A stretch of 64,000 bases of DNA, from assembly GCA_026075535.2 (NCBI GenBank), contig AP026540.1, positions 10,974,001 through 11,038,000 of the forward strand. Reading direction: 5' to 3'. The notes beneath the pieces are model-generated. The model did not search any database, was not told where the DNA came from, and was given only the letters and a program-made list of their open reading frames with translations. Below are positions 11,249 through 54,994 of this stretch, piece by piece (the stretch's first letter is position 1; every line of letters begins with the position of its first letter). The translations under genes were made by a program, and so were the position numbers. The DNA is from Tricholoma matsutake (Eukaryota; Basidiomycota; Agaricomycetes; Agaricales; Tricholomataceae).

Positions 11249-11463
11249 GCTCAACGCTGTAATTTACCCTCCCCCACCTATTCCGATTGGAGTCCAGTTA
11301 TTATGGTTGGAGTCCAGTTGTTCTGGTTGGAGTCCAGTTATTCCAGTTATTCCAACCAGATTCTCGTTACTCCAGATGCTCAACTTAGAGTATATACCCC
11401 TAATGGATAGTCAAATTTCAAGTCTTAAGTTGTCAAAGTGCCTACAAAATATATTTGTGCAGA

Positions 11464-11550
11464 GTAAGGATTGAACTCAAGACATCTTGATTAGAGTGAT
11501 CACATGACAAACCCAACATGTGTGCTTAACCAGTTGAGCCACAGGAGAAT
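11464..11550 (-). repeat. tRNA-like segment, left end of A (outward-facing)
   Basis: On the minus strand, a box-A-like GTGGCTCAACTGGTTAAGCA is followed about 45 nt later by a box-B-like GAGTTCAATCC. The acceptor ends do not pair, so it is tRNA-derived rather than a functional tRNA. It would direct Pol III transcription outward, towards the left TIR. Confidence 0.65.
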
Positions 11551-11639
11551 TATCAGTTAGTAATATAAGGTTTATTCATGACACTCAAACTCACAACTCT
11601 AATTTTTTTCGAAGTAGTTAAGATCAAAAAATTTTAATT

Positions 11640-11912
11640 AACCACATCCCTCACATTGAATGCGAGGGAGTGGGGATGATTGTGATTACATACATAAACA
11701 AAAAATCCTCCTGAGCACAAGATGCGAGAGGGAGTTTTATTTATATACATAAAAAGCTAACCCCTCGCATTCGGCACAAGGGGGGAGGTAAAAACATGAA
11801 GAAAAAAATCCCTCCCCCATGCAAAATGGGGGAGGGGGGGCACAATACTAATAAATAATTAAAAGTACAAAAAAATCCCTCCCCACGCAAAGTGCGGGGG
11901 AGGGGATGCGAC
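11640..11912. repeat. Array of G/C-run hairpins (element A)
   Basis: Four successive short palindromes of the type CCCTCCCCCATGCAAAATGG paired with GGGGGAGG are separated by AT-rich linkers of about 40 bp. Each stem is a run of C/T paired with a run of G/A around a TGC-AAA loop. Equivalent arrays occur in B, C, D and element I. Confidence 0.75.
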
Positions 11913-11952
11913 CCCACTGTGCTAGGTGTGTTGTCTGTCATTCCACCCACAA

Positions 11953-12165
11953 TCCACCCCATGAGCAGTTTCTCGTGAGGCTGGGGGTGGGTGGCTTGTC
12001 ATTGTTGTCGTTCCACCTGCGATCCACCCCATGAGTGGTTGCTCGTGAGGCTGGGGGTGGGTGGTGTGTCATTGTTGTCTCCTGTCCCTGTGCCTGGGTG
12101 TCATTCCACCCACAATCCACCCCACGAGCAGTTGCTCATGAGGCTGGGGGTGGGTGGCTTGTCAT
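11953..12165. repeat. Three tandem GAGCA-type hairpins (element A)
   Basis: Units near 11,953, 12,023 and 12,113 each read CCACCCC-ATGAGCAGTTGCTC-(GTGAGGCTG)-GGGTGG. The inner palindrome GAGCA/TGCTC is nested inside an outer CCACCC/GGGTGG palindrome. Spacing is about 70-90 bp. Confidence 0.8.
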
Positions 12166-12447
12166 CGTTCATCACTGTCGTCCCCTGTTTGGATTTCTGT
12201 TTTTTCTTTTTTTTTGGGGAAGGGTTTGGGTGCATCAGTGCGACATGGCGTGAGTACAGAGGTTGGTGGGTGCTTACTAGGCAGGTACCCCCCTTCTGGG
12301 GTCTCCTGGCATCCCTCTGCACCCTCCTAGCCCATGTCGACAGCCTCACATCCCATTTGAATGGGGAGGAGGGGATTGGGTGGGCATGGGTGTGGGCATG
12401 GGTTGCACGTTTTTTGTTGTGGCAGGTCGTCCCCAGTAGTATACAAC

Positions 12448-12540
12448 CTAAAAAGCAATAAATTACAATTAGTTGATTGATAAAAAGAAAAAGAAAAAAG
12501 AAAAAAAACTTATCTATGGCCCAAACGATGTTGCCATTGT
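12448..12540 (-). other. Intron-like segment with GGCCCAAA palindrome (element A)
   Basis: On the minus strand, the palindrome GGCCCAAACAATGG...CATCGTTTGGGCC is followed by a pyrimidine-rich stretch. This has an AACTAAT branch-like site and a TTTTTAG acceptor, then GTTGTATACTA. The donor reads ATAAGT here rather than GTAAGT, so this copy may be unable to splice. Confidence 0.6.
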
Positions 12541-12824
12541 TTGGGCCCGCATTCCATCCAGTCAGCTCATTTGAAGGTGGTGGTGATGGTGGCAGTGGGC
12601 ATGGGAATGGTGGTGGCGGGTGTGCATGCAGTGGTGGTGGTAGAGTGGAGAGGAGGAGGAGGCGGCATTGACAACAGTGGTGGTGGTGGTTGTGAGCTGG
12701 CAGTCATGTGTCATGTGTCATGCATGTATGCATACTTATTATTTATTCCGTTAATGGCTGTGGTTAACTACACACCTTGGTTTGGTCATAAAGGTATTAA
12801 ATGTATGTAGAGGAATGATTACCT

Positions 12825-12890
12825 GGTAGCTCAGTGGTTAAGCATGCTGTGATATGCAGACCCAAGGTCGAGGGTTCAATTCTCATTGTA
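12825..12890 (+). repeat. tRNA-like segment, right end of A (outward-facing)
   Basis: Box A (GGTAGCTCAGTGGTTAAGCA) and box B (GGGTTCAATTCTC) are both well formed and about 35 nt apart, the best pair in the window. The ends do not form an acceptor stem. It faces outward, to the right. Confidence 0.7.
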
Positions 12891-13262
12891 TGTCAAACTT
12901 TTATTTGGGGAAGCACATGCATTCCAGTTATTCCAGTTAGTCCGGTTATTCCAGTTATTCCAGTTGTGATGAGTCTGGTCAGATTCCGGGGATTCCAGGT
13001 AAACTTTGCACTCCCCCCCATATTCCTATCAGAGTCCTAGGAGTCCGAGTTTTCTGATAGGAGTCCAATCGGAATCCGATAGGAGTCCTACTAGTCCGAT
13101 GGGAATCCGATCAGAATGTATCTTGATGACCATGTACTTTTATTTCCAAGAAATTCCTAGTAAATTCCGAGTAAAGTCCTATGCAATTCCAACAGGTAGT
13201 AGTCGGAATACCACACCATTTCGGCAGACTTAACTTGATGAAAGTGCTTACAAAATAAATGG

Positions 13263-13349
13263 ACAGAGCAGGAATTGAACTCTAGACCTTGGGATATACA
13301 TGACATGACTACCAAACAAGTGCTCAACCAATTGAGCCACAGGAGCATT
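13263..13349 (-). repeat. tRNA-like segment, left end of B (outward-facing)
   Basis: On the minus strand, box-A-like GTGGCTCAATTGGTTGAGCA and box-B-like GAGTTCAATTCC. It is nearly identical to 53,078-53,160 in element C and closely related to 32,732-32,815 in element D. Confidence 0.68.
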
Positions 13350-14364
13350 AATAAATATGTAATATAAAGTCCATTTAAAGCACTTAGGATTAGTTCACTT
13401 ATTTTTAACCTCTCTCACAAGAGCTCGAAAAAAAATTGTTGAGCCCTCGCATCTTCGTGAGGGAGTAGATAACTAATATAGATTTTTAAAAAACCCCCCA
13501 CGCAAACGTGAGGGGGAGAATTAATTATACTATTTAATTATACTATTTTAAATTCTACAAAAAAAACCCACCCCCCCGCAAAATGGGGGGGAGGGGGTGG
13601 TGGTGCGTCATGTTGGCTGTCTCATCAGCCCTGTCCCATCATTTCCCCTCCCTCTTGTCTCCATCGTGTCTCGCCTCCCTCACCTTGCCTCCCTCATCGT
13701 TCCACCCACCATCCACCCCATGAGCAGTTGCTCACGAGGCTGGTGGTGGGTGGTGTGTCATATGTTGATGGCGGCATTTGTCCATCGTCCCCTCCCTCCC
13801 TCCCCCTCCCCTTAAACACCCTACAAGCAGATGCTCGTAGGTGTGCGTGGGGTGGGTGTCGCCATCGTCTCCCCTTCTGGTCATCGTTTCCCTTTCCCCT
13901 TGTCGTTTCGTCACCCTTGTCATTCATCCCCCTTGTTGTCTGCACCCACAAACCACCTTATGGGCAGCTGCTCGTAGGCGTGTTGTTTGGTGCTGTCGTC
14001 GTCCCCCCATGCCATTCCTGTGTTCTCACACCCCATATACACCCCACAAACAGTCACTCACAGCAGTGATGGGGGGTGCTGGATGTCATTGGTGTTGTGG
14101 GGGGTCCATGCACTCACAATCCACCCTATGAGCAGCAGCTTGTAGGTGTGGGGTGGGTGCATTGTTGGTTCATCAGTGACATGGCATGAGGGGAGGGGTC
14201 GGGTGGTGCTTACCAGGCGGGTATTCCCCTTCTGGGGTCTCCTGGTGTTACTCCCCGTGCTCCTGACCATGATTGATACCCTCACATCCCGTTTTGACAG
14301 GGAGGAGGGGGGTTGCCAGGGGCGTCGTTGGGTGTGGGTTTGGCTTGTGTCAGTCCATCGTTAC

Positions 14365-14455
14365 TCATGTAGATTAGAACCTAGAAATAAAACAAATGAA
14401 TTAGTTAGTTTACAAAAGTAAAAAACGAATGAAAAAAAAACTTACTATGGCCCAA
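14365..14455 (-). other. Conserved intron with GGCCCAAA palindrome (element B)
   Basis: On the minus strand: donor GTAAGTTTTTTT, branch AACTAACTAATTC, acceptor TTTCTAG, then GTTCTAATC. Immediately upstream is a palindrome, GCCCAAACAACGCAATCGTCGTTTGGGCC type. The spliced exon then has an ATG (14,372 on the plus-strand map) opening a frame towards the PGDPRRG peptide. Confidence 0.7.
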
Positions 14456-14723
14456 ACGACGATTGCGTTGTTTGGGCATTGTTCAGCGTCGAAACCAGTC
14501 ATTTCCGGTCTTGGGGGCTCATCTAGAGATGGGGATGAAGTGGGAGTGGTGGGAGTTGCTGGGTTGAGGTGGTTGAGGTGGGGGGGATGGAGGTGGCGTG
14601 CTTGTCGTCATTGGTGGTGGTGGTGGGAGTTGATGAGCTGGCAGGTGTGATGACGCAGCTATGTGCTTTGTCATCACACCCGCGGGAATGGTATGTAGTG
14701 TAGTATGATCACTTACCTGTAAT

Positions 14724-14800
14724 GACTGTTTAGCCTAATGGTATTGTAGTCGGTTTATGCTTACATAATCTTCTGTAGTCAAGTGTTCAATTCTCATCTG
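14724..14800 (+). repeat. tRNA-like segment, right end of B (outward-facing)
   Basis: Box-A-like TTTAGCCTAATGGTATTG and box-B-like GTGTTCAATTCTC are about 45 nt apart. This is a different tRNA-like type from the left-end copy. The element C counterpart (54,405-54,490) keeps a better box B, GGGTTCAATTC. Confidence 0.6.
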
Positions 14801-15284
14801 TGCATTTAATTTTTCATACTATATTACTAAGCAAGGCTGCTTTCATTCCTATCGGAATCCTATGTTGTCTGATGTCTTAGCATAACTTTGGACTAGTCCT
14901 ATGTGATTTCTATGATCGGAAATTCCTAGGAAATTCCAATAGTCTGATCGGACTCTGATCGAACTACATCGGACTGGACTAGGACTAAATGTGCCATTTC
15001 ATGTCAATTTGGCTGGTGAAAATGACATCAGAATATGGTTGGATTCCGATCGGTGTCCGATCAGAATCATCGGAATCATCGGATTCCTATAGGAATATGG
15101 GGGGGAGTGTAAAGACCTCGATTCCAGGTGTAAATTGGATCCTTATTCTGACTGGAATTGTGCTGCATAGGGAAAACTACATACAAAAAAAATTCCACTG
15201 GATTCCAGAAATTCCAGAAATTCTGGCCAGACAAACCGGAATCCAACCGGAATAGGTGGGGGAGTGTAAAGTACTCGCTCAATG

Positions 15285-15515
15285 GCTTGTGGCTCTGAGC
15301 TGCACCATTGGCAACACTAGTCGTCTCTGTCAGAGGTGCCATGTTGCCCAAGGTAACAATCACTCCATACATTAAATTTGGTCAGGATGCAACAGCCTGA
15401 GATAGCAAGTCCTCGAAAATCCTCCAAGGTCCAATGGGTTCAGGTTTGCAGAGACAGAACTGCATGTACTCAGGCTCCGAAGTTCTCTTTGTGTACCACC
15501 CCAGGCGTTCGACTA
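15285..15515 (-). pseudogene. Coding remnant of unknown function between A and I
   Basis: On the minus strand an open frame begins with an ATG lying in the TSD of element I and runs about 46 codons (motifs VERLGWYTKR and GPWRIFEDLL) to a TGA at about 15,390. It then stays open to the edge of element A. It may be the start of a host gene into which both elements inserted. I recognise no family. Confidence 0.35.
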
Positions 15516-15691
15516 CCTCTGTCTAGGGAATAGCACAGGTGCGGGTAAACCTGCGGTGTTTAGGTCACGGGGTACACAGGTATGGGTACAGTGCCTGAAA
15601 TTCTGAACCTGCATCATACCGTACCCATCCACATGGTGTCATGGGTTTTCATGGGTAGTGCTAGGGACTAACGTGGATACATCTGGATACA

Positions 15692-19734: not shown

Positions 19735-21135
19735 CCCATCTTTCACCAATAGCTCCTCATCTGAGAAGACCTGCAATTGCAGGCTCCCTTGATTACAGGA
19801 GCTAAGTGGAGTAGGCAGTGGGGTAGGGAATCCACCACCCCATGAGCAGTTGCTCGCAGGCATGGGTGTTGTCTCATAGGCAGGGGGGTAAGGGATCCAC
19901 CACGAGCAGTTGCTCGAGGGCATGGGTGTTGTCTCATAAGCAGTGGGGTAAGGAATCCACCACCCCACGAGCAGTTGCTTGAGGGCATGGGTGTCATCTC
20001 ATAGGCAGTGGGGTATGGGATCCACCACCCCATGAGCAGTGGCTCACGGCGGTGGGTGTTGTTCATGGGTGAGCATGGTAGATAGTATACATCCTAAAGA
20101 AAGAAAACATCGTTAGTGAATAAAACACACAAAAGAAAAAAATGTACCTGGGGCCCAAACGACACGTCATTCATGTCATTTGGCCCCCCTCTGTGCACTC
20201 GTTCCTCCTATTGTTGTTGTTCCATGCACCATGCACCCCACGAGCAACCACTCAGGAGGCTAGAGGCATGTGGTGTGCCATCCATCATGGGTGTGGCACA
20301 TTGTCTGTCACAGGTGTGGCATGTTGGTTGTGGGTGTGGCACATTGTCCGTTGTGGGTGTGGCACGTTGTCCATTGTGGGTGTGGTGTGTCATCTGTCGT
20401 GGGTGTGGTGCGTCATCCATTGTGGGTGTGGTGGTGGTGGCCTGCCACCTCTCTCCTCCCTCCCTGCCATCTCCCACTGGGTCCTAGGCATCAGCACCCA
20501 CAATCTACCCTGCGAGCAGTTGCTTGCAGGCGAGGGGCAGGTACTGGGCATGCCTGGGCCTGTAGGCATGTTGTGGGGGTCATAGTGCCTAGGTCAAGGG
20601 GGTTATGAGGGTGTTAGTGACGTGGTGTGCATCGAGGGGCTGGGAGGTGCTTACTGTATGGGTATCCCACCTCCTGGGTCTCCCAGTGCCCCTCGTTGCC
20701 CCTCGTTGCCCTTCTGACCCTAATCCACACCCTCGCATCCCATTTGATGGGGAGGAGGGGGTTTACGTGGGTGTCGTGGACATGTGTCATCTTGTGTCAT
20801 CCCAGTAGTCTAGGTCCTAGAAAATAACAAAGTGTAATCAGTTATTCATGATAATGGGAAACAAAGAAGAAAAAAACTTACTTAGGGCCCAAACAACAAC
20901 AATTGCATCGCTTGGGCCCATGTTGTAGCTCCGAAAGCTTGTTTGCAGGGTCTGGTGGTGATAGAGGGGAGTGAGTGGAGCTGGGAGCAGCGGTTAGAGG
21001 TGTGGGAGCGGTGGTGATAGGGTGGGAAGGTGGGAGGCAGTGGTGTCAATGGTGCTGGTGGTGGGGGATGGTATTGTCAAAGTGTGGTGGTGGTGGTGGT
21101 TGATGGCAGTGACAATGGTATTGTCCAGCAACATT
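19735..21135 (-). repeat. Hairpin/exon/intron leader of hAT element G
   Basis: It contains GAGCA-type palindromes near 19,841, 19,897, 19,960, 20,023, 20,235 and 20,505. Two intron-like segments lie on the minus strand: 20,093-20,148 (donor GTACAT, branch CACTAAC, acceptor TTTAG) and 20,818-20,883 (donor TAAGT, acceptor TTCTAG). Each has a GGGCCCAAA palindrome just upstream of its donor. A (GTGGGTGTGG)n stretch spans 20,280-20,440. The block lies between the right TIR and the transposase start, on the gene's strand, so it reads as a duplicated 5' leader. Confidence 0.75.
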
Positions 21136-24621: not shown

Positions 24622-24625
24622 ATGT

Positions 24626-31245: not shown

Positions 31246-32731
31246 CATTATGGCAACCCAATGTTTACCTTTGTCCATTCCTGCACAACCCAATCGAAGT
31301 GCTTTTCCTTCTTCAATTCCATCTGCCCACCCGTCCACCAGCAGCATTTCCTACAACAACAACCCAAACCTCTCGGTTGCTTTGTCCCCCTCCCCTCTGT
31401 CAAACACCCCAAGTACTTCTTCTGGCATCCCAACTTTTAAGGTCTTCTTCCTTTCGGCCCAAATTAACATTTGACTCCTGTTTTCTTCATGGTACCTTCA
31501 AGTCCCCATGGACAGAGTCCTTTCGCCAATTTTAACTCTGTGTGAAGGTTCATGTCAATGAGCTGGGGCCAAAGGTTGTCTGAGTCGGCTCTGGAGATGC
31601 CTGTCATCTCGATTGACAGGAAGTCAAACACTTTGGAGGAGGTTGCTGTTTGGAAATCCGGCTCGTATTCAAACTTCGAGAATGATAACCAGCTGCTGAA
31701 CCTACCTCACTCTTCAAATTGATTTCATGACAATGATGATACAATTGTATTTTCAGGTAAATATCATCATATTCTCTGATTAAGGCCTGGTTAACTCCCG
31801 ATCTAGGTGTTGCACCTCAGTGTTGCAAGCACTTTCCCCAGGCCTTCCAATTTTGGCAGATCTCTCCACAATCATTAAAGCAGACATCTCAAGAATGTCC
31901 CAACACCTCCCTTCTTCATCAAGGTCCTCACCTTTGTTGTCTCCCGAGTCCTGCCCTGCCCTCCCCAATTATTTTGCTTCCTGCTGCCTGAAAAACCAAG
32001 TCTGAGAGGGGAAATGATAGAGAAATGGACAAGGGAGTGGAGGCAGACACTTCTGTATTCAATCTCTCTATGATGCACCTGACAAACCAGGCCTCAGATG
32101 CCTTGTTGGACAGAGACTCTAATGCTGCCTCAGAGTGGCTCAGCATGGATAAAGCGATGGTGACAATTTGAGACCCTTTGACTTACCCTCACCTCCACCT
32201 CGCAAATGTGGGTCCTCAGGCTTGGCAGCAGACCAGAGTTTCAACTTAGGTGTACTAGATCTGGATCTAGCAACCCTTCTCAGCCCCAATCGCCTCCCAA
32301 ATGGCAGTGCAAATGTAAAGCTCCATTCTATGGTTCCTCAGCCATCAAAAAATCACCACCCATAATTGATCTCTCACAACCTTCACCAGTATCAGCACAT
32401 TTTCCACCATCACCCTCAGGTTCAAGTGCTGGATTCACACCATCACCTTCATCTCTGATGTTCCCACCAGCCAGTGCATCATCCCCAAGCTCCCCTAAAT
32501 CTGTTTCTCGCTTGCAACCTCCCAAGCAGCAGTCTTCTCTACCACATCTCCATCCACCAGGATGGCATTCTCCCTCTCGGGCTGAACTTTACACTGCCCC
32601 ACATAGTCCTGGAGGAATCCAGTGGGACTCAGTACCCTAAAGTCATACCATAATGGAAAGTCAATTTACAAGTTTCAAGTGCTTTGGACTTCATGAATTT
32701 CACAAAGTACCTACAAAATAAACTTGTTCAA

Positions 32732-32815
32732 AGCAGGGATTGAACTCTAGAACTCATGATCAAGAATCACATGCCAAACCAAACAAGTGCTTAACCAGTT
32801 GAGCCACAGGAGAAT
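32732..32815 (-). repeat. tRNA-like segment, left end of D (outward-facing)
   Basis: On the minus strand, box-A-like GTGGCTCAACTGGTTAAGCA and box-B-like GAGTTCAATCCC are about 45 nt apart. It is closest to the left copy in element A. Confidence 0.67.
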
Positions 32816-34107
32816 TATTAGCTGCAATATAGAAGTGTATTTATACCCTCAAACTCAAACTTAGGTATTTCTCTCTCCAAGCTCACAATTAAGATCAAAT
32901 AAAATTTATTAACTACATCCCTCACATTGGACATGAGGGATACACCATTAATTACATAAGAAAAAACCTCCCCCACACAAGGTGCGAGGGGAGTCCTACA
33001 AATATATACATATAAAACTAATCTCCCCTCGTGTCAAACATGAGGGGAGCACTACAATTATAAAGAAAAAGAAAGAAAAACCCCTCACCCATGTAAAACA
33101 TGGGCGAGGGGGAAGGTATTACCATAAATAAAAAATGAAAAAAACCGCCCCACGCAAAATACGGGGGCAGCCTGGTGAGTTGTGCCTGTCATCCTGTCCC
33201 CATCATCCTGGGTGCTGGGCCTTCGTCGTCGCTGTCCTCATTGTTGCTGTCCTGGGCATCGTTTCCATGCTGCTCCTGGTCGTGCCCTTCCTGGTCGTCG
33301 TTGCCATCCTGGCCGTCTCCCGCTGTTGCGTTCCCTGGTGCTGGTGTCCTGTTGTCATTGCATGGTCATCTCCATCCTCACACCTGTTTGTTGTCCTGGC
33401 TTCACTGTCGCTGTCCTGGCGGTGTTGTGTTCCCTGGTGCTGGTGTCCTGTTGTTGTTGCATGGTCGTCTCTGTCCTCACACCTGTTTGTTGTCCTGGCT
33501 TTGCTGTCGCTGTCCTGGCGGTGTTGCATTCCCTGGTGCTGGTGTCCTGTTGTTGTTGCGTGGTCATGTCCATCCTCGCACCTCTCCTTCCACCCTGCAA
33601 GCAGTTGCTCGCAGCGGTGGTGCTGGGTGCTGGGTCATGCTTGTCATCCATTGTCCTCCCTGTCCCATCATTTTTGTGGTTGTCTGTTGTCCTCCCATCC
33701 TTGTCTTGCCACCCCGCTGCTCTTGTCATTTGCGGCTCCTCGGCTCCATCTCCATGGTCCTCATTGTTGCTCCCTGTTTCCACCCCGCGAGCAGCTGCTC
33801 ATGGCGGTGGAGGGTGCAGTGGTGGTGGTGGGTCGCATCATACAACGAGAAACTATAAAAATTCAAAAGAAAACTAATATTAATCAAAAAAGAATGAAAT
33901 GAACACAAAAAAGACTTACCTGGGCCCATTTCCTTACGGCCCAGCCTTCCCTCTCTGCGTCATCGTTCTCCATTTCTTCGTTCATCATTCGTCGTTCATC
34001 GTTCGTCGTTTTTCGTTTGTCATTTGTCATCTGTTGTCTGTCATCTGTTGCTCGCTCATCGTTCTTCATTTGTTGTTTGGTGTCGTCTTGTTGTCATGAT
34101 ATAGTTA

Positions 34108-34200
34108 GAACCTAAAGAAGGAAAGAAAATATTAGTTAGTTCAATAAAAAAAAGTAAAAAACATAACCTGGGCCCCAAACGATATCTGTCATCATTTGGG
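34108..34200 (-). other. Conserved intron with GGGCCCAAA palindrome (element D)
   Basis: On the minus strand: GGGCCCAAATGATGAC...GTCGTTTGGGGCCCAG-type palindrome, donor GTTATGT, branch AACTAACTAAT, acceptor TTTAG, then GTTCTAAC. The donor is weak, but the layout is the same as in B, C and G. Confidence 0.62.
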
Positions 34201-34435
34201 CCCGAGGTGGTTCAAATGCAGCCATTGGCGGCATTAGACGGGGTGGTGGTGGCCATAGGAGCAGTGGCAACAGGTGTTGACAGAGGGGAGGCAGTGGAAG
34301 GGAGGTGGCATCATTGTCGAGAGTGGTGATGATGGTGGATGATGAGCTGGCAATGTTGATATGCGGCTGTATGCTTTGTCATGCACAGCTGCCCCAATGG
34401 TAACTAGAGCAGTAAGTGGACATACCTCATAAGTC

Positions 34436-34510
34436 TATGTGGTGTAGTGGTTATATTGGCCATGCTAGAATGTTGTTGTCTCATGCCTAGGGTTCAATTC
34501 CAGCTCATGT
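34436..34510 (+). repeat. tRNA-like segment, right end of D (outward-facing)
   Basis: Box-A-like GTGGTGTAGTGGTTATATT and a good box B, GGGTTCAATTCC, lie about 45 nt apart. It faces right, towards the TIR. Confidence 0.66.
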
Positions 34511-35552
34511 CATTTATTTTATTACTTAGTAGTAGTAAGGACTCCTGGTTCAATCCTACTGGATTCCTGGTGAGTCCTGGTGAGTCCTGGTGAGTCCTGA
34601 TGAGTCCTGATGAGTCCTACAGAGTCCTGGTTACTCTTATAGAGTCCTACAGGATTCCTGGTCAGTCCCCCCAGATTCCTGAGAGTCCAAGTCCTGGGGA
34701 ATTTCTGGAATAGTACCAGAAAGAGCCTGATTTACCAGGAATATACCAGGACTGAACCAGGAATTCCACTAGAGGAAAAACAGCCAGGAATGCAACATTT
34801 GGTGAACAATGGCTGTGGCAGGGATAACCAGGATTCCTGGAGGATTACTGGAGGAATCCTGGTAGTCCTACCAGGAAGACCAGGATTCCTCCAGGAATAT
34901 GTGGGGCAGTGTAAAGAGCTCCTCTCGGGCATCCGTCACACCTGCTAACATTGCATCATTTGGGTCGCCAGCGGATGAAAGTGAGAGGACAACTATCAGC
35001 ATCAGTACCACTAGAAACTCCTCAGAATGAACCCAGACTCCAATGACAATGCCCTCACAAAGACATACTCCATTCCCGCCCTCCCCATTATCCCTCTTTA
35101 CAGCCCCATGCAGCTCAAGCTCTATGAATGCCAGCACATCAGTCCTTCCATATTCTGTTCCATTGATCTCCGCATGATGTAATGTTGTTGCCCTACAACC
35201 ACCGGTCTTTACTTGATTTCCACCAGTCATACCAAATTGTCCCCCTCTCCATACTATATGGTTGGGCGGTTGACGATTGAGGACTCCGAGTTCGAACAGT
35301 ACATATGTAGATGAACTAGTGCTAAAAATGCCACTGGATACTCATCTGTCACTGAATGTCAAAAAATCACATTCCGTCAGACTTGGAGGCTTGAAGGGGG
35401 AATCAGGACTGATCCACATGTATTGAATATGTATATTAGCACTCTGAAGACAACACAAAAACATAGCGATGAAAGCAGGCTGTAACAGTTGCGGGTAATG
35501 AAAGGATGACAAAAAAGACATATGCACAACCAATGTAGATATCAATCACTTA

Positions 35553-42922: not shown

Positions 42923-45900
42923 CTAAGATGCATCGCCCCGATGCATTCGAAATCGTATACGATCAAAGTCCGTGACTTGAATGTGACGCGGTGCAGCAGT
43001 GTGCCGTCGGTGGAATTCCTTGATTAACCGAGGGGCATTTACGTCAGACTCTTCGACCCATGAGTTCTCCTCATACCCATAACCCTTCCAATGTACCAAA
43101 TACTGGAGTTTTCCTCGACGCAAATGGCTGTCCAAGATTGACTTGACTTCATATTGGGGTTCTCCCTCGATCACTGTAGGTGGTGGTGGTGGGTGTGAAT
43201 GGCGTCCCGGGAACGGATCTGGGGGAGCTGGAAGCAATTTGATGACATGGAAGACAGGATGGAGTCTGGACATGGAGGCTGGGAGGCGTAGACGATAGGC
43301 ATGTGTTCCAACGCACTTGACAATGGGGAAAGGTCCCAAGAAGCGATGAGCGAGTTTCTTGGATGGACGTGTAGTGGAGATGTCACTGGAGTCAAGATAA
43401 ACTCGATCACCAACCTTGTACTGAGGGGTTGGGGAGTGGCGCTGGTTGTAAAATCGCGCCATGTCGTCCTTTGCCTTTGCTAAGGCTGCCCTTGCCTCCT
43501 CCAAGCTATCCCTCATGCGTTCTGTGAACTCATTCACTGTCTCGATGTGTGAGGGAGTTTGGCGAGGTTCAAATCCCATGCGTGGATGTCGTCCAGTGTC
43601 TAAGAGGAAAGGGGTCTGTTGAGTGGAAGCATGGACATGGTTGTTGTACCCGAACTCGGCCAAAGGAAGGAGATCATCCCAATCGTCCTGGCATTCATTG
43701 ACAAAGAGGCAGATGTACTGCTCCAGTTCCTGGTTGACTCGCTCTGTCTGGCCATCAGTTTGTGGGTGATAAGCAGTTGAAGCGAGGAGTTTGATCCCCA
43801 GGAGTCAGTACAGCTCACGAGTGAACTCTGCCATGAACTGAGGGCCACGATCCGAGAGGAAGGCACCAGGAAGTCCATGTAATTTCCACACGTGGTGGAG
43901 GTAGAGTCGAGCGGCACCTAGGGCACTGACAGTGGTGTGAGTGGGAATGAAGTGAGCGCGTTTTCCCACTGAGTCAACTGTGCACATCACTGCATCAAAC
44001 CCGTTTGACTCTGGCAATTCCACCACAAAGTCGATGCTGACGACATCCCAACGACTCTCTGGAACAGGAAGAGGGTGTAGCTCACCAATAGGCTTGCGAC
44101 GAGGGACCTTGGTGCGTAAGCAAAGGTCACAAGTGCGACAATACTGACCAATGAGCCGTGACATTTGTGGCCACCAATAGTTCCGTGAGGTGAGCTCCAA
44201 GGTCTTCCAGCGTCCGGGGTGGCCAGCAATCTGTGAGTCATGGTGTTGGGATATGATGCGCCGGCGAAGGTCAGGGTCATTGGGAACATAGATGCGATCC
44301 CTGAAATACAACAAGTCCTCCTTTTCAGCCCACTCTGCCGCACATAAGGAAAGGGTTGATCCCTTCCTCAGTTCTTTAACAGCTCGGGCGACAACATCCT
44401 CATGTAAACCGCTACGGTTTGCACGACGAATGTCACGTAGAATGTCCCGCTCCTCACCCTGGGGTACGATGCCCTCCAGTGCCCGAATGGTGAACAGGTC
44501 TGGCTGCAACAGCACAATGTTTTGGTTGTCACCACTGCCATCCCCATGGTCTGCACGTCGGGATAGGGCATCGGTCTTCCCCATGCTGCGACCCGGACGG
44601 TGGTGCAAGGAGAAGTCGAATCTAGATAGATACAGGGACCAACGAGCTTGACGACGGTTCAATTTCTTGGCCGTCATGAAGTACTCGAGGTTCTTGTGAT
44701 CCATCCAAATTTCCACCTTGTGTTGGGCACCCTCGAGGAAGTGTCGCCACTCCTCAAGCGCACGCATTATTGCCAACATCTCCTTGTCATGGATCTCGTA
44801 GTTTCTCTCTACAGCACTAAGGCTTTTGGAGTAGAATGCAACAGGATGCCACTTCTGGTCGTCCGGAGACTGCTGAGACAACACAGCACCCATCGCAAAG
44901 TCAGAATTGTCGGCTTCTACACGAAAAGGACGCGAATCATCAGCAAAGGTAAGGATCGGAGCGGAAGTGACCATCTCCTTAAGCTTTTCAAATGCCTCCT
45001 GTTGTGCATTATCCCACCTCCATGCCTCCTTTCCTGTCAAGTCGAACAGCGGTCGTGCATGATGTGAGAAATCCTTGATAAAACGCCGATAAAAATTGAT
45101 GAAGCCCAGGAAAGACTGCACCTCCTTCTTGTTCGTGGGCATCGGCCAAGCTGTGACCCCGTTTACCTTGATAGGATCCATCTCCACTTGACCCTCCGAG
45201 ATAATCAGGCCGAGGTACTCGATCTTGGTCCTTTCGAACTCGCATTTGTCCTGACGAAGGTAGAGTTTGTACCGTCGAAGTCGCTCTAGGACGAGGCGCG
45301 TGATGCGACGGTGCTCTTCAACCGTGCGAGTGAAGATGAGGATGTCGTCGAGATAGATGCAGACAACGCCTTCGAGGATGAGGTCATGGAAGATGTCGTT
45401 CATCATGGTCTGAAAGGTGGCAGGGCTATTAGTAAGGCCAAAGAACATGACAAGCGGTTCAAAAAGACCACGGTTGGTACAAAAGGCTGCCTTCCACTCA
45501 TCTCCCTCCTTTATCCTCACATTATTATAGCCCCAACGGACATCGAGCTTGGTGAAGTATCGGGCTCCACGGAGCTGGTTTACGAGTTCGGAGATGAGGG
45601 GTAGTGGGTAGCGATTTTTGACCGTGATATTGTTGAGTCTTCTGTAGTCTTGAACCGGTTGAAGTGAGCCATCCTTCTTCTTGACAAAGAAAAAGGGAGA
45701 GGCCATGGGTGACTTTGATGGTCGAATACGTCCAGAGGCCAGGTGCTCGTCGATGAACTGGTCAAGCTGCCGTTGTTCCTCCGGAGAGAGAGGATAGACC
45801 TTGCAGGATGAAGGGGTTGCGCCGGGGGTGAGTTCGATCGCGTGATCCCATGGCTTACGCGCAGGAAGAGAGTCGAATGACTCCTTGGAGAACACGTCTT

Positions 45901-46825
45901 CAAACTCATGGAGATGAGGGAGTAAGGAGTTAGTAGAGGATTTAGCAGCATTGTTTTTGTGGAAGGCCTCGGCAAGGCGTTGGGATATGTTTGATGTGGC
46001 ACACACCTCATGCGATGAGCAAATCGCAGTGTAGAAGATCCGATCACCCTCCTCCACTTCCTCTGGGTCCTCATCATCATCATCCGAGTCCGGCATTAGA
46101 TCAGGAACCCCTTCCAATTCCACTTCAGGTATAGGCAGGGGTCCAGCACGACACTTCTGAGTTCGTCGTATTGCCGCCTTCTGTCCACGACGTTCTTGCC
46201 TGGCTTCTGTGAAACACGTCCGACAGCGGGATGGACATCGGCTCATGGTAACCTCCCCGGTGCGCCAGTCGACCTCTAGGTTATGGTCTCGAAGCCATGG
46301 ATATCCCAAAATCGCCTTTTGCTTTCCTAATTGAGTGACAGCAAAAAGGGCACGCTCACTATGATCTTTGTAACGGAGAACCAGGTCTGCAACCTCTCAG
46401 ATGGCACCAGCTTCATTTGGGGATCCATCCACGTTATATACAGGTATCGGACGTGAGAGTGAGCGAGTATTTAGACGATGTTGTTGTACCAGATGGGAAT
46501 CGATGAAGAGACCAGTCGCACCAGAGTCCAGGAGCGCAGAGACACCGAGTATCTGTCCAGTGTCGGTCGTCTGCAGTTCGATGGCTAGGTTTAAGGAATG
46601 TGCAGAGGGAGTGGATGCCACAATATACTTGCGTGGTAGTTTACGCTCCCATGATTTAATTTTGGGACGTGGAGTAGAAGGAGAGATGGGGAGAGCAGGT
46701 ACGTCTTTAGCCAACTTCGAAGGGTCAGAGAGGGGAGCAGTCACAGAAATGGATTCATTCTCCAGGGATTCAACTGACAAGACTTCAAAGCGGTTATGGA
46801 CAGGCAGTGAGGGCATACGATTCAC
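42923..46825 (-). pseudogene. pol: Gypsy pol: protease-RT-RNase H-integrase-chromodomain
   Basis: One frame runs the whole length, broken by TGA at 46,397-46,399 and 43,805-43,807. The protease active site is LLDSGATGLFID (about 46,515). RT has FFVKKKDGSLQPVQDYRRLN and YLDD (about 45,350). RNase H follows (RVEADNSDFAMGAVLS, WMDHKNLEYF). Integrase has the H-H-C-C finger (CRTCDLC, about 44,135) and the DDE segments SIDFVVELP, LSDRGPQF and QTDGQTERVNQELE. A chromodomain (LQYLVHWKGYGYEENSW, about 43,075) near the end marks a chromovirus and would direct insertion to methylated-histone chromatin. Pol starts at the gag stop in the -1 frame, the usual frameshift layout. Both TGA codons sit where CGA would restore Arg. 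Confidence 0.93.
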
Positions 46826-47940
46826 TCGCTGCGAATAGGAAAATCCTGCTCCTCTACAACTTCCAGCTTAACCTCCTCTGCAACTTGATCCTTCGCTTCC
46901 TCAACATCTACAAGTGCCAACAAATCTTGCAGGAGTTCGTCTTGTCCCTCGGGGGTGAGCATGCGGATATCCTGACGATGGGGACATGCTCCAGCCCTGT
47001 GTCCAGGTTCCCCACAACGGTAGCAGAGATCCAACTTACATGCACGGCTGCAGGCTGCATCAACATCCATTGGTACTGGGATATTGACGGCTGGTGTGGG
47101 AGTTTGACGAGCAGGAATGGGGTTAGGGCGGGGGAGGCTTCGATTGAAGGTGTAGGGTGTATGAGTGGTAGTTGGAGCATGGAATGCAGCATTAAATGCC
47201 GCATTTGTGAGTCGGTTCTTGTCACAGAGTGAAGCAGCTTCATACCAAGCAAGGATATCATCGTCCGCTGGGCGCCCTTCCAACATCTGTGCAATCTGGT
47301 CCTGAATTTCTCGGTTGAGCCCCCGTCGGAACTTCACCACTACTGGTAACCCACTCCCATACCCTGCCATGTCCACCAAATCCTTGAACTCATCGATATA
47401 GTCGTCCACGGATCGACGTCCCTGGTGGTAAGTGGATGACTCAAGTTGTGTCACTGCTCGGTGGCGTTCATTGAGGGGGCAGAAGTGGCATACGAACTCA
47501 GCTCAAAAGTCACCCCAAGTGGAGAAAGGTAGAGAACTGAGTTCTTTAGTTTGACATAGGATACGGTCCACATAGAGATAGGCGCGTTCAGATTTCATGT
47601 ATGTGAAGGCCCAATAAATTTTTGCAGCCTCATCGACGAATTGATGCGACTGGAGACTAATGTATAACTCACAGGAATTAAGGAATGCATGTCCCTGCGC
47701 ACGTGCACCATTAAATTTGGTGGGGGGGGATGGTTTGATCTGGGCACGTTCCTTAGTGGACGCGTTTGGCAAAACGTCGTTGTTGGGTGCGCTTGGAGTC
47801 GTGAAGGGGGAACTATTAGTCGTAGGGTTAGCCTGGAGGGTCCTAACGAAGTTTTCAATCGTAGATTTAAGCGAGTCAATTTGTGCGCGCATTCCGGAAA
47901 CGTCGCTTTCAAGCGCGTCAAAGCGTTCTGATGCGTCCAT
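46822..47940 (-). pseudogene. gag: Gypsy gag with CCHC zinc knuckle
   Basis: The ATG at 47,940 opens a coiled-coil-like N-terminus (LESDVSGMRAQIDSLKSTIE), then a Pro-rich linker and the capsid region with RSVDDYIDEFKDLVDMAGY. Near the C-terminus is the knuckle C-YR-C-GEPG-H-RAGA-C (about 46,990-47,030), which binds RNA. A TGA at 47,503-47,505 interrupts the frame about 145 codons in, and the same frame continues to the stop at 46,822-46,824. Length (about 370 codons) is normal for fungal gypsy gag. Confidence 0.9.
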
Positions 47941-49025: not shown

Positions 49026-49029
49026 CTCT

Positions 49030-50275: not shown

Positions 50276-50285
50276 TATGAGAGAG

Positions 50286-50467: not shown

Positions 50468-52791
50468 AATGCATCGGAAACACATGAAAACATTGTAGTA
50501 GAGATTTAGAACAAAACAGAGAGTTCTCATATGAGACAAAAACTGAGGATGCCATTGTTGAGAATTGACATGCTCAGAAAATGAACGATGTGATTGTATC
50601 TGATAAGGATCAGAACACATGATTAAAGAGATGGAAAAGGTCAACAGATGGAAAGATCAAGTCTGGTAGGACACAATAGGAGAATATGTGCATTGGCATG
50701 AATGAGATGACACAGGATTTGTTGATCCATGTCAACCAACATAAGAAATGGACTGTATTGCCCTGTAAACTTGTAAACTTGTAAACTTAAGTACTTATCA
50801 TAAAAATCACACTTGTGGGCATGATAGTCTTGAGGGATCTTGAGTTGTCGTGAAGGAGCCTTACAGAAACTGAGAAATTGGGGGAAAGAAGAGATCCTCC
50901 ATTCGACAGGTGGGAGGTCACCTAAATACAAAACTGAAGATAAAGAATTTGTTTGCATATGATCACGTGTGTACTCTTGCACTGTCAAAACCACCAGGGA
51001 TGCAAAAAGAAGTAAAAATATGTAGAAAAGGGATGACTCAGGAATCAGGTACAAAATTGGATCAAAGAATGATGTCAAATGGTAAATGGATGTCGGTCTG
51101 GTGTCATTGAGTCCACCTCTCGGAACATCAGCTGCCAGGAATTGCTCAGGAAAGGGACTAGCACTGGGATGCTCTATTGACAAGATGTTGCCTGGGCCCC
51201 AAACAAGTGCAGAGCATCCCAAAATGTAGCCTCCCAACCCTACTCATCTGGCAGATCAGTCCTTCGAGCCAAATCCTGCTAGCCATGGAAGTGGGAATAG
51301 GTCGAGATGTCATAGCTTGCATAAAAATAAGAAGAAAGCATAAAATTTAAGGAAACTCAACCATAAGAACCAAAAACCAATAAGAGTCCTTCGAGATGGG
51401 AACAGCTTGTTGTAAAGCCCATGAAGGCTTGCTGACTAATGGCAATGATGCATGTGTTGAACACGTCGAGTGGTTTCGGGCCAAGAGGTATTTCCTAGAG
51501 ATCCAAGATAGCAAAAGAAAGGTATAAGTAAGAAAATCAGGTAAGAAAAAGAGAAGAACAGAAATTGCACAAGGTAAAGAGGCTACGTCATGATGCTGGT
51601 TGTCGAGAGAGTTGAGAGAAATGGTTCAGAAGGGGAAAGTCGATGGGTGAGTCTATCTTTCCTTCCATAATGCTTCCTGTCAATGTCATTATTCTCTGGG
51701 TCTGGTGCTTTCCAGACAGCCACCTCAATCCTAACAGCTGCATACCCTTTGGCTGCTCCCAGTATGCAAGGTAAAGAGCCTGAGACGGTGATAACAGGGT
51801 GCAGTACAATGAGAAGTTTCATGGTGGCCGAGGATCCCGATGGTTTGGGGGGGCATACAGGGTGGAACAGGAGGATTATGGTAAAGATTGCAGAATTGAG
51901 GAATGGTGGGTGTTTCAATTTATGGATTCATTTTTTGTGCTTGTTTTGTGTGTTTCCATGTTTGTTTCTTCATTATATTTTGTGGTTCTTCTTTTTGTCA
52001 TTGGTTTTCATGGGGTTTGTTCCCCATGTTGCCATCGGCTACCATACCTTCTTGTGGTTTTTGTCAGTTTTCACATTTTTCTCTTCCTTTTCATTTTTTC
52101 AACTACCCTCACAAAATCTGAACATACACTGATATGCCCATTACCTACAGCCAGATCACCATTTTTCAGACAATATTGAGATGAAGCAGCATTCTGAAGT
52201 TGCACTCAGCGCCAAGCACCAGTACTGATAGTAACATGAACATTGTCAGAAACTAATGCCCAGGTCACATGGGGACATTGTCTTCACTTTCCTTGTCATC
52301 ATTACATGCGTAGAGGGCTGAAGAACGCGATGGTCTAGCGGTGGGCACTAGGGTGGGTCTCCCGAGTCAGTGGAGAGATCATTTTGACTCCAGGCCCCAA
52401 GGTTATCCAATCTCCAACCTGAATTCTCTGTTTATCAATGCTGATGCTATTCTCAGGTTCTGCGGCTGTGTCTGGATAATCTCCTTGCTCATACCCACAT
52501 CGTCTACTTCCTAGACCTCTTTATAACAGCTACTGCGTCTAGGTCCTCCCAGAATGGATGGATTTCAGCATTGACCCTCTTGACCTGAACACCAACATGA
52601 ACCTCAACCCTGACCCCAACAATCCTCGAGTTCAACTCATAGGACTAATCCGCAAGAAGTATAAGAAAGGGGAGGAAGGATAGCACATGGTACCACAAGG
52701 GATTGGGGTGTGGGTTTACTGCAGATGAGGATACACCTTGCACAAGCATAGTGGCGGCCGGGAACAAGAGAATTATACTTGCCTGTTTGGG
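50468..52791. other. Unassigned stretch with a possible decayed membrane-protein gene
   Basis: The minus strand has the two longest open frames here: 50,641-51,237 (198 codons, hydrophobic centre IPESSLFYIFLLLFASLVVL) and 51,583-51,918 (111 codons). I recognise no family and cannot join them by good splice sites. The tRNA-like segment at 52,329-52,400 is listed separately. Confidence 0.3.
52329..52400 (+). repeat. Possible tRNA-like segment
   Basis: GATGGTCTAGCGGTGGGCAC resembles box A, and ATTTTGACTCCAGG, about 45 nt later, weakly resembles box B. It does not fold as a full tRNA by eye. Confidence 0.35.
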
Positions 52792-53077
52792 GAATGGTTG
52801 TAAACTTTGCACTCCCCCCCATATTCCTATTGGAGTCCTAGGAGTCCAAGTTTTCCAATAAGAGTCCAATCGGAATCTGATAGGAGTCCTACTAGTCCAA
52901 CACTAGTTCTAGGAGTCTGATAGGAATCCGATCAGAATGTATCTTGATGACCATGTACTTTTATTTCCAAGAAATTCCTAGTAAATTCCAAGTAAAGTCC
53001 TATGCAATTCCAACAGGTAGTATTTGGAATACTCGGAAGACTTAACTTGGTGAAAGTGCTTACAAAATAAATGGGCA

Positions 53078-53160
53078 GAGCAGGAATTGAACCCCAGACC
53101 TTGGGATATAAGTGACATGACTACCAAACAAGTGCTCAACCAGTTGAGCCACAGGAGCAT
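53078..53160 (-). repeat. tRNA-like segment, left end of C (outward-facing)
   Basis: On the minus strand, box-A-like GTGGCTCAACTGGTTGAGCA and box-B-like GGTTCAATTCC (better than in B). It is nearly identical to 13,263-13,349. Confidence 0.7.
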
Positions 53161-54404
53161 TAATAAATATGTAATATAAAGTCCATTTAAAGCACTTAGG
53201 ATTAGTTCACTTATTTTTAACCTCTCTCACAAGAGCTTGAAAAAAAATTGTTGAGCCCTCGTGTCTTCGCGAGGGAGTAGATAACTAATATAGATTTTTT
53301 TTAAACCCCCCATGCAAATGCGGGGGGAGAATTAATTATACTATTTAATTATACTATTTTAAATTCTACAAAAAAAAACCACCCCCCCTGCAAGATGGGG
53401 GGGAGGGGGTGGTGGTGTGTTGTGTCGGCTGTCTCGTCAGCCCTGTCCCGTTGTTTCCCCTCCCTCTCGTCTCCGTCATGTCTCACCTCTCTCACCTCCC
53501 CTCCCCCATGGCTTCCCTCCCCTCCCTCATCTCCCCTTCCTCATCTTCTGGTTGTCGTCTCCCTTTCCCCTTGTTGTTTTGTCCCCCCCCCTCGTCACCC
53601 TCATAGTTCATCCCCCTCGTCATCTGCACCCATGAACCACCCTACAGGCAGCTGCTCATAGGTGTGTTGTTTGGTGCCATCGTCATCCCTCCACGCCGTT
53701 CCCATGCTCTTGCACCCCATATACACCCCACGAGCAGTCACTCACGGCAGTGATGGGGGGTGCTGGATGTCATCGGTGTCGTGGGGGGTCCATGCACTCA
53801 TGATCCACCCTACAAGCAGCAGCTCATAGGCATGGGGTGGGTGCATTGTCGGTTTGTCAGTGACATGGCACGAGGGGAGGGGTTGAGTGGTGCTTACCAG
53901 GCAGGTATTCCCCTTCTGGGGTCTCCTGGTGTTGCTCCCCTCGCTCCTGACCACGATCAATACCCTCACATCCCGTTTTGATGGGGAGGAGGGGGGTTGA
54001 CAGGGGCATCGTTGGGTGTGGGTTTGGCTTGCGTCAGTCCATCGTTACTCATGTAGATTAGAACCTAGAAACAAAACAAATGAATTACTTAGTTTACAAA
54101 AGTAAAAAATGAATGAAAAAAAAAACTTACTATGGGCCCAAATGATGATTGCGTCATTTGGGCGTTGTTTGGTGTTGAAACCAGTCGTTTCTGGTCTTGG
54201 GGGCTTGTCTAGAGATGGGGGTAAAGTGGGAGTGGTGGGAGTTGCTGGGTTGAGGTGGTTGAGGTGGGGGGGATGGAGGTGGCATGCTTGTCATTGTTGG
54301 TGGTGGTGGTGGGAGTGATGAACTGGCAGGTGTGATGATGCGGCTATGTGCTTTGTCATCACACCCACGGGAATGGTATGTAGTGTAGTATGATCACTTA
54401 CCTG

Positions 54405-54490
54405 TAATGACTGTTTAGCCTAATGGTATTGTTGTCAGTTTAGGCTTACCTAATCTTCTGTAATGTCAAGGGTTCAATTCTGGTGTGTGT
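54405..54490 (+). repeat. tRNA-like segment, right end of C (outward-facing)
   Basis: Box-A-like TTTAGCCTAATGGTATTG and box B GGGTTCAATTCTGG are about 45 nt apart. It is the twin of the right segment of B. Confidence 0.65.
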
Positions 54491-54994
54491 GTTGACTTTT
54501 TCATACTATATTACTAAGCAAGGCTGCTTTCATTCCTATTGGAATCCTATGTTGTCTGATGTCTTAGCATAACTTTGGAATAGTCCTATGTGATTCCTAT
54601 GACCAGAAATTCCTAGGAAATTCCTAGGAAATTCCGATAGTCCGATTGGACTCACATCGGACTGGACTAGGACTAAACCTGCTATTTTATGTCAATTTGG
54701 CTGGTGAAAATGACATTGGAATATGGTTGGAATCATCGGAATATCAGATTCCTATAGGAATAGGGGGGGGAGTGTAAAGACCTCGAATGGTTAGTTTCAT
54801 TTTTTGGTTTTTGTCATCATTTTCTGTGTTTGGTTCTTGCTATGTTGTATCTCAGTTGTTCCTGGGTGTTCAACGTCTTCTCCTTCCATCTAGCTTCATC
54901 TTCCCCTGTTTCTTTCTTTTGTTACCTTTTCCTTCATGACCACTCAATCATCCGCTGACTCTGGGGCATATACAGCTTCACAGACAACTTAAAA

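What the first reader, a model, noticed from the sequence alone, without database searches (positions are those of the whole stretch)
11257..54784. Non-coding TIR element family bounded by two outward-facing tRNA-like segments
Elements A (11,257-15,276), B (12,999-15,119), D (32,582-34,921) and C (52,800-54,784) have the same plan: TIR core CTTTACACTCCCC, an 8-bp TSD, a minus-strand tRNA-like segment near the left end and a plus-strand one near the right end. In all four cases both promoters point outward. The left and right tRNA-like sequences are of different types, so this is not a simple inverted duplication. Boxes A and B are kept best where other sequence has drifted, suggesting selection for Pol III transcription or for tRNA-gene-like chromatin. 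I know of no described hAT-like element with this bookended layout.
Basis: partly seen in the sequence, partly recalled or inferred. Interest (0 to 1): 0.88.

Follow-up and report, generated by a model that had tools for sequence, protein, structure and literature searches.

The report
Mushroom transposons with tRNA-like bookends
A family of over a thousand non-coding 2-kb jumping elements in the matsutake mushroom carries a tRNA-gene-like promoter near each end, both pointing outward and nearly always with its own stop signal, and keeps them while much of the other sequence changes, which suggests that the elements need them to move.

Summary
The window lies in the Tricholoma matsutake telomere-to-telomere assembly. 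All four elements have the stated TIR and 8-bp TSD (A's is 7/8); B is nested in A. The TIR pattern occurs 3,261 times against 31 for the reversed control, the left unit 1,599 against 0. Of 28 TSD-checked elements, 20 have a strict outward A box + B box + T4 unit on the left, 17 on the right, 15 on both, none inward or internal (shuffles 0.47, 0.30, 0). Of 27 consecutive exact TIR ends (mostly right ends), 22 carry a homologous outward unit, 0 an inward one. Left A box and right B box are conserved across subfamilies far above background, the other two boxes moderately. T4 follows 43 of 45 units. The tRNA acceptor stem is at chance: promoters, not tRNAs, are kept. Subfamilies II and IV are 82% identical over 230 bp beside the right end, then lose similarity until the TIR, yet both carry an outward unit there, of different type. 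Mechanism is inferred: Pol III factors at both ends probably aid mobilisation. A methylation-shield version, tested through CpG decay, was not supported. No autonomous partner was found, so hAT membership is unproven.

The parts
11257..15276 (+). Element A (subfamily IV), ends CTGTAATTTACCC / GAGTACTTTACAC, TSD GCTCAACG/GCTCAATG; interrupted by element B
11468..11541 (-). A left tRNA-like unit, outward (A box TGGCTCAACTGG, B box AGTTCAATCC; T4 beyond it at 11446-11449, minus strand)
   Evidence: for coordinates; missed by the strict scan
12827..12883 (+). A right tRNA-like unit, outward (TAGCTCAGTGG ... GGTTCAATTCT; T4 at 12899-12902)
12999..15119 (+). Element B (subfamily III), nested in A, TSD GATTCCAG
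13271..13339 (-). B left tRNA-like unit, outward (TGGCTCAATTGG ... AGTTCAATTCC)
14731..14794 (+). B right tRNA-like unit, outward (TAGCCTAATGG ... TGTTCAATTCT, T5 at 14810-14814); weak B box, missed by both scans
   Evidence: by eye; the same boxes at ends 1120581 and 1210395
32582..34921 (+). Element D (subfamily V), TSD CTCTCGGG
32736..32806 (-). D left tRNA-like unit, outward (TGGCTCAACTGG ... AGTTCAATCCC, T4 beyond it)
34440..34501 (+). D right tRNA-like unit, outward (TGGTGTAGTGG ... GGTTCAATTCC, T4 at 34517-34520)
52800..54784 (+). Element C (subfamily III), TSD GAATGGTT
53083..53151 (-). C left tRNA-like unit, outward (TGGCTCAACTGG ... GGTTCAATTCC, T4 beyond it)
54416..54481 (+). C right tRNA-like unit, outward (TAGCCTAATGG ... 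GGTTCAATTCT, T5 at 54497-54501)

Best explanation
These are non-coding TIR transposons with 8-bp TSDs, presumably mobilised in trans by a transposase that I could not identify. Shown: near each end (left mostly 180-300 bp, right 100-420 bp from the element end) lies a tRNA-derived unit with the sequence features of a Pol III type-2 promoter (A box, B box, T4 terminator, no tRNA acceptor stem) that points outward and stops before the TIR; the boxes are kept while much other sequence drifts; and the right unit differs between subfamilies that are 82% identical over the adjoining 230 bp. Inferred: selection on a transposon acts through its mobilisation, so the units act in cis for it. The likeliest way is that TFIIIC/TFIIIB and Pol III keep the two end regions accessible, and perhaps clustered, when transposase assembles the two ends. 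Transcription itself, factor binding and any effect on transposition are not shown.
For: Layout: strict units outward at left 20 of 28, right 17 of 28, both 15 of 28, inward or internal 0; 30 shuffles give per 28 elements 0.47, 0.30, 0, about 0.4-0.5 inward at each end and 1.8 internal. Consecutive exact TIR ends: 22 of 27 with a homologous outward unit, 0 of 27 inward, unchanged with same-locus units left out. Genome: left unit 1,599 (control 0), one right type 355 (control 0), TIR pattern 3,261 (control 31). Of 55 consecutive left units on C1, 33 have a TIR of the pattern within 800 bp on the outward side, 30 of these at 183-297 bp. Pol III grammar: T4 within 45 nt after the B box in 24 of 25 left and 19 of 20 right units (background 0.21); T4 inside the unit in 2 of 25 and 1 of 20 (background 0.31 for 68 nt). 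Conservation: and with CpG columns removed. No tRNA fold: acceptor stem 2.24 of 7 pairs left and 3.40 right, null 2.78 and 2.85. Module exchange: II against IV.
Against: No transcription, ChIP or transposition data. CpG decay is not lower around the units, which argues against durably open or unmethylated ends after insertion. In 3 of 28 left and 8 of 28 right ends the relaxed regex finds no unit; some are weaker B boxes (subfamilies III, IV), others deletions or decay (L025, L035, L038; by eye). Of 27 ends 3 have no outward unit by either scan (1411842, 1786068, 1856725). Of 55 left units 13 have neither a near TIR nor a partner end in the list, and 1 also has a TIR on its inward side. A 21-nt stretch inside the left unit is as conserved as the boxes (0.86), so that unit may have a role beyond the boxes or a younger common origin. 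The boxes' conservation was judged in windows that I placed after seeing the sequences, on related subfamilies, four of them single copies.
Confidence: 0.42

Rival explanations
1. The units are chromatin boundaries (like tDNA insulators or B2 SINE boundaries) that shield the element from heterochromatin and DNA methylation.
For: Boundary roles are reported for TFIIIC sites and B2 SINEs (PMC6950938 and PMC8136502, seen only in the search listing). Placement just inside both ends would fit.
Against: CpG decay at ancestral CpGs is 18/41 = 0.44 in left unit zones, 81/135 = 0.60 in right unit zones and 327/628 = 0.52 in the interior, over 23 copies of subfamilies I-IV. The left value is slightly lower, the right one higher.
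Confidence: 0.17
2. The units make functional small RNAs, for example a left-end RNA of about 100 nt, that help the transposase or act against host silencing.
For: A 21-nt stretch between the left boxes is 0.86 identical across seven subfamilies; the whole stretch between the left boxes is 0.75 without CpG columns.
Against: Between the right boxes identity is 0.37 or, without CpG columns, 0.47 and equal to background, and the right unit differs in type between subfamilies. Predicted folds are not better than shuffles for 3 of 4 units folded (z 0.56, 0.35, 1.49; D's left unit -2.12). The stretch upstream of the left A box, with a TATA-like look, is not unusually conserved (112 of 591 windows as good).
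Confidence: 0.15
3. Relics: tRNA genes or SINE heads captured long ago near both ends and kept by common descent without a function.
For: tRNA-derived sequence is repeated in this genome: 14 of 20 fetched tRNA hits are tRNA-Ile(TAT) with shared flanks, two of them read in context and lying in different repeats.
Against: 0 inward or internal units in 28 elements and 0 inward in 27 ends; boxes outlive flanking sequence; terminators kept; unit type differs while place and direction stay.
Confidence: 0.16
4. The elements are SINEs or a SINE-like composite moved by reverse transcription.
For: tRNA-derived promoters.
Against: Elements are bounded by TIRs with 8-bp TSDs at the TIR (22 of 28 at 8/8, 6 at 7/8), 24 of 28 are 1.7-2.4 kb, and T4 lies before the ends in 43 of 45 units, so a Pol III transcript would not span the element.
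Confidence: 0.02

Closest known systems
Non-autonomous hAT elements (MITE-like)
   Same: 8-bp TSD, TIRs, non-coding as far as seen, high copy number, subterminal short repeats
   Different: Outward tRNA-like Pol III units at both ends and a hairpin-rich body; one end always begins GAG or AAG instead of the hAT-like CAG (hAT end recalled); no hAT partner with this TIR found
Zisupton/Dileera (KDZ) transposons of basidiomycetes
   Same: 8-bp TSD (PMC12730594, passages); KDZ domains are abundant in this genome (165 matches, 150 of 831 candidates scored)
   Different: No KDZ-like frame noticed by eye inside the elements in ORF listings of 180 aa or more (two KDZ-like frames seen there lie outside elements, in L027 and L033); of 8 KDZ loci with about 1.5 kb flanks one has a single TIR match with 2 mismatches, the rest none
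tRNA-derived SINEs, including fungal ones (PMC5063351, search listing only)
   Same: A box, B box, decayed tRNA fold
   Different: Two units per element, facing apart, in a TIR element with DNA-transposon TSDs; a transcript ending at the T4 cannot cover the element
Dada superfamily (PMC3706591, search listing with start of abstract; name Dada recalled)
   Same: A link between DNA transposons and small-RNA genes
   Different: Those insert into small-RNA genes; here the tRNA-like units are inside the element
megB1 of basidiomycetes (described in PMC10627285, passages)
   Same: Non-coding repeat known from this genus
   Different: megB1 is there called a dimeric Alu-like element, listed among retrotransposons

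Membership tests
hAT superfamily (non-autonomous member) | 8-bp target site duplication | tested here: met
   28 of 131 TIR pairs tested have a TSD of at least 7/8 (22 at 8/8)
hAT superfamily (non-autonomous member) | TIR ends of hAT type (CAG-like start at both ends; recalled, from no call) | tested here: inconclusive
   After orienting by the GAG/AAG end: left end CAG in 17 of 28, CTG in 7, GTA or CAA in 4; right end GAG in 27, AAG in 1
hAT superfamily (non-autonomous member) | Autonomous hAT element with the same TIR | tested here: inconclusive
   151 hAT-dimer matches (150 of 449 candidates scored), but TIR places are listed only for C1 up to 5.6 Mb; the 3 listed hAT matches there lie in no facing TIR pair under 15 kb.
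KDZ (Zisupton/Dileera) | 8-bp TSD | tested here: met
   TSD rule from PMC12730594
KDZ (Zisupton/Dileera) | KDZ transposase in a partner with this TIR | tested here: inconclusive
   8 KDZ loci, about 1.5 kb flanks: no good TIR; 13 listed KDZ matches on C1 below 5.6 Mb lie in no facing TIR pair under 15 kb
tRNA-derived SINE | No TIR; reverse-transcribed Pol III transcript spanning the element | tested here: not met
   TIR + 8-bp TSD; T4 before the ends in 43 of 45 units
tRNA gene | Cloverleaf with acceptor stem | tested here: not met
   Acceptor pairs at chance in 25 left and 20 right units; ARAGORN 0 in the window; Rfam below cut-off
Pol III type-2 transcription unit | A box, B box, T4 terminator, no internal T4 (sequence features) | tested here: met
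Pol III type-2 transcription unit | Transcription by Pol III / TFIIIC binding | not testable with these tools
   No RNA or ChIP data held

The most novel reading that the evidence does not exclude
A DNA transposon lineage that uses the host's Pol III machinery as a cis-acting part of transposition: TFIIIC/Pol III units at both ends, exchangeable between tRNA types, open or pair the two ends, and their divergent outward transcription may underwind the hairpin-rich body between them (136 perfect short hairpins in 28 elements against a mean of 9.65 in 20 shuffles).
Probability: 0.25. Interest if true: 0.88.

Novelty: new variant of a known kind. Interest (0 to 1): 0.72.

Why it matters
Pol III promoters are a hallmark of SINEs, whose RNA is the mobile form. 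Paired, outward, self-terminating Pol III-type units kept at both ends of a DNA transposon imply a use of Pol III factors that has nothing to do with copying the element into RNA. With over a thousand copies in one finished genome and boxes that can be mutated singly, it makes the question of how chromatin and host transcription factors affect transposon-end assembly directly testable. It may also explain part of the 'small RNA' repeat class of this genome.

Tried and rejected
Simple inverted duplication or long TIR containing one tRNA: rejected, left and right units match only at TIR, subterminal repeats and, briefly, at the boxes. True tRNA genes: rejected. CpG-poor boxes as the cause of their conservation: mostly rejected; without CpG columns left A stays at 2 of 544 windows, left B at 33 of 545 and right B at 9 of 489, while right A weakens to 42 of 487. 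Methylation shield: not supported. Link to the amplified tRNA-Ile(TAT) copies: two such loci were fetched and read; in one the tRNA lies in another TIR element (L077 281-3273) and points inward, the other lies in different sequence (L078), so not the same plan. Autonomous partner: no transposase noticed by eye in the ORFs of two long copies (L030, 4.4 kb, appears to contain a nested subfamily IV element). The 3 hAT and 13 KDZ matches listed on C1 below 5.6 Mb lie in no facing TIR pair under 15 kb among 138 listed TIR places; the rest of the genome was not covered, apart from a look by eye at 40 copies of D's left end. The degenerate hAT in the window (about 2842-7415, minus) gave no convincing TIR/TSD. 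A Pfam scan of it failed because the stretches contain stops and was not repeated. Literature: 10 searches; none of the rows shown, by title and start of abstract, describes a TIR transposon with paired outward Pol III units; the library lacks most subscription papers and only part of the larger hit lists was shown. PMC12730594 was seen as outline and passages; PMC10627285, PMC10211490 and PMC6980582 as passages.

Limits: loci L001-L048 all come from chromosome 1; 24 of the 28 elements are from there and 4 from the window. The loci were mostly chosen as pairs or neighbours of exact TIRs. The 27 ends are consecutive but need the exact 13-letter core, which favours right ends (19 of the 22 units found are of right type), and 14 of the 27 ends belong to the 28 elements. 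Box patterns and zones were set after I had read the family's sequences. The subfamilies V, VI, VII and VIII are single copies, and V-VII are related; the VII right end includes part of the nested IV element. The end at 1715224 was not TSD-checked as an element. In one search only 3 of 20 host tRNA controls matched the control regex. L010 and L011 look like inverted copies of one locus (not tested; not among the 28).

Full report
Where it is. The window is G000:C3:10974001-11038000 of a 161,040,721-base, 13-contig genome. The total and the lengths of contigs 12 and 13 (9,912,917 and 9,869,253) equal those of the Tricholoma matsutake telomere-to-telomere assembly (PMC10211490, passages). That paper reports 71.6% repeats, with 25.4% of the genome unclassified.

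The four elements. All four reported elements stand as described. TSDs are 8/8 for B, C and D and 7/8 for A. B lies inside A; without B, element A is 1,891 bp. The element ends lie 5 bp outside the TIR core. I noticed no transposase-like frame in them in the window's ORF list of 200 aa or more, nor in two long copies elsewhere.

The family. CTTTACACTCCCC occurs 1,028 + 1,038 times in the genome against 6 + 6 for the reversed control. The degenerate pattern CTTTRCASTSCCC (eight sequences) occurs 1,642 + 1,619 times against 20 + 11. Among fetched loci and the window, 131 facing TIR pairs were tested and 28 have a TSD of at least 7/8, 22 of them 8/8. By chance fewer than one of 131 would be expected (my estimate from equal base frequencies). 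Whole-element comparison gives groups I (5 copies), II (10), III (4, with B and C), IV (5, with A), the related singles V (D), VI (L023) and VII (L030), and VIII (L038); 24 of 28 are 1.7-2.4 kb (grouping by me).

The bookends. A scan for a Pol III A box (up to 2 mismatches), a B box (up to 1) and a T4 run within 60 nt, over both strands of all 28 elements, found left outward units in 20, right outward units in 17, both in 15, and none pointing inward within 700 bp of an end or lying in the middle. Thirty dinucleotide shuffles gave per 28 elements 0.47, 0.30, 0, inward hits of 0.37 and 0.50, and 1.77 middle hits. A family-specific regex raised this to 25 left and 20 right. As a less selected sample I took the first 27 consecutive exact TIR copies of chromosome 1: 22 have an outward unit similar to the library and 0 an inward one, and the same 22 and 0 when units from the same locus are left out of the library. 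Of the 22, 19 are of right type. Two more (1168226, 1715224) have outward A/B/T4 units of other types with one mismatch in all; three have no outward unit by either scan. With the generic scan of up to 2 mismatches in all, 22 of 27 show an outward hit and 3 of 27 an inward one. Genome-wide, the left unit pattern occurs 813 + 786 times against 0 + 0 and the TGGTGTA-type right unit 179 + 176 against 0 + 0. Of 55 consecutive left units, 33 have a TIR of the pattern within 800 bp on the outward side (30 of them at 183-297 bp), 9 have only the partner end on the correct side and 13 neither; 1 of the 33 also has a TIR on the inward side, where two TIRs lie about 0.75 kb apart. The left TIR variant of subfamily IV is not in that pattern.

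Pol III grammar and selection. T4 follows the B box within 45 nt in 24 of 25 left units (at 16-18 nt) and 19 of 20 right units; background for 45 nt is 0.21. T4 inside the unit occurs in 2 of 25 and 1 of 20; background for 68 nt is 0.31. So each such unit would end before the TIR. Across seven subfamily sequences (VIII left out) mean column identity on the left is 0.49, A box 0.94, a 21-nt stretch between the boxes 0.86, B box 0.84; on the right it is 0.46, A box 0.71, 38 columns between the boxes 0.37, B box 0.80. Windows elsewhere as good: 2 of 617, 33 of 618, 29 of 590 and 7 of 590 for left A, left B, right A and right B. With VIII included they are 4 of 628, 28 of 629, 56 of 619 and 3 of 619. 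The aligned T-run columns are not special (left 71 of 617, right 210 of 591), since the runs sit at slightly different places. Removing CpG columns, which decay fast here, leaves left A, left B and right B in place and weakens right A to 42 of 487; the stretch between the right boxes is then 0.47, equal to background. The tRNA acceptor stem is not kept: 2.24 of 7 pairs (left) and 3.40 (right) against 2.78 and 2.85 at random positions, while D and T stems, which overlap the boxes, stay above random. The natural reading is selection on promoter boxes, clearest for left A and right B.

Unit exchange. Subfamilies II and IV are 82% identical over 233 aligned bases of the right part of the body; then blastn similarity (E up to 1e-3) stops and resumes only at the TIR. 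Yet both have an outward A/B unit in the non-similar stretch, TGGTGTAATGG-type in II and TAGCTCAGTGG-type in IV. Subfamilies I and III also show no similarity to II over the unit. The left-type end at 1715224 has a TGGTGGAGTGG-type unit where others have TGGCTYAA-type. Place and direction are kept while the sequence differs. I count this as the strongest sign of function, though deep divergence of one ancestral unit cannot be excluded, least of all for types I and III.

Mechanism. A transposon copy is under selection only through its own mobilisation, so kept boxes point to a cis role there (inference). I favour factor-bound, accessible ends, possibly paired by TFIIIC clustering. A direct prediction of the related shield model, less CpG decay at the units, failed: 0.44 left unit zone, 0.60 right unit zone, 0.52 interior, over 23 copies of subfamilies I-IV. 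The elements are packed with short perfect hairpins, 136 in 28 elements against a mean of 9.65 and a maximum of 16 in 20 shuffles, at 2.4 per kb inside and 1.9 per kb in the outer 420 bp. Whether divergent outward transcription would stress such a body is speculation, given as the novel case.

Relation to known kinds. TIR, 8-bp TSD and lack of coding place the elements among non-autonomous DNA transposons. hAT and KDZ/Zisupton both give 8-bp TSDs (PMC12730594, passages), and both kinds of transposase domain are present in this genome. I therefore do not file them as hAT. The units look like SINE promoters, but the elements are not SINEs. None of the rows shown in my ten literature searches described an element with this plan; that is a limited library.

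Noticed in passing
window about 2842-7415 (minus): Degenerate hAT transposase pieces (C-terminal dimerisation motif and others by eye) broken by many stops; Pfam hAT dimer match at 3118-3315.
   Followed up: partly
window 42923-47502 (minus): Ty3/Gypsy-like retrotransposon with long open frames (863 aa and others) that look like reverse transcriptase, integrase and a chromodomain; by eye.
   Followed up: no
window 8464, 8542, 8622, 10205, 19844-20514, 21704: The GAGCAGYTGCTC-type hairpin found in the elements' bodies also occurs in window sequence outside the four elements, so the hairpin module may be shared with other repeats.
   Followed up: no
L059-L061, L063-L067, L069, L070, L073-L076; L077 2499-2572; L078 about 2555-2628: 14 of 20 fetched tRNA hits are tRNA-Ile(TAT) with shared flanks; the two contexts read differ from each other. 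T. bakamatsutake is reported to have 275 such genes (PMC10627285, passage).
   Followed up: partly
L077 281-3273: Another TIR element (CATGCGGGTACTGGCA, 15 of 16 matched, 5-bp direct repeat ATTAT) carrying a tRNA-Ile(TAT) gene that points inward.
   Followed up: no
G000:C1:1640495, 2391312, 3727808, 3845642, 4938879, 5067529: A 58-59-nt variant of the GTGGTGTAGTGGTTA unit with no listed TIR within 3 kb; perhaps another repeat family with tRNA-like sequence.
   Followed up: no
23 copies of subfamilies I-IV: About half of ancestral CpG sites have decayed to TG/CA/TA in copies, 0.44-0.60 by zone; fits the CpG hypermutation reported for this species (PMC6980582, passage).
   Followed up: yes
genome annotation, PMC10211490 Table 2 (passage): 'Small RNA' repeats: 2,342 copies, 1,936,958 bp, about 830 bp each, too long for tRNAs; copies of this family may have been put in that class because of their tRNA-like units (inference).
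   Followed up: no
L030 1613-6030: What looks like a subfamily IV element nested in a subfamily VII element, a second case like B in A.
   Followed up: partly
right ends, some tens of bp upstream of the right unit: A conserved imperfect hairpin GCGGCTATATGCTTTGTCATACACAGCC (1 of 602 windows as well conserved with all 8 subfamilies, 20 of 573 without VIII); role unknown, not seen in subfamily IV (by eye).
   Followed up: partly
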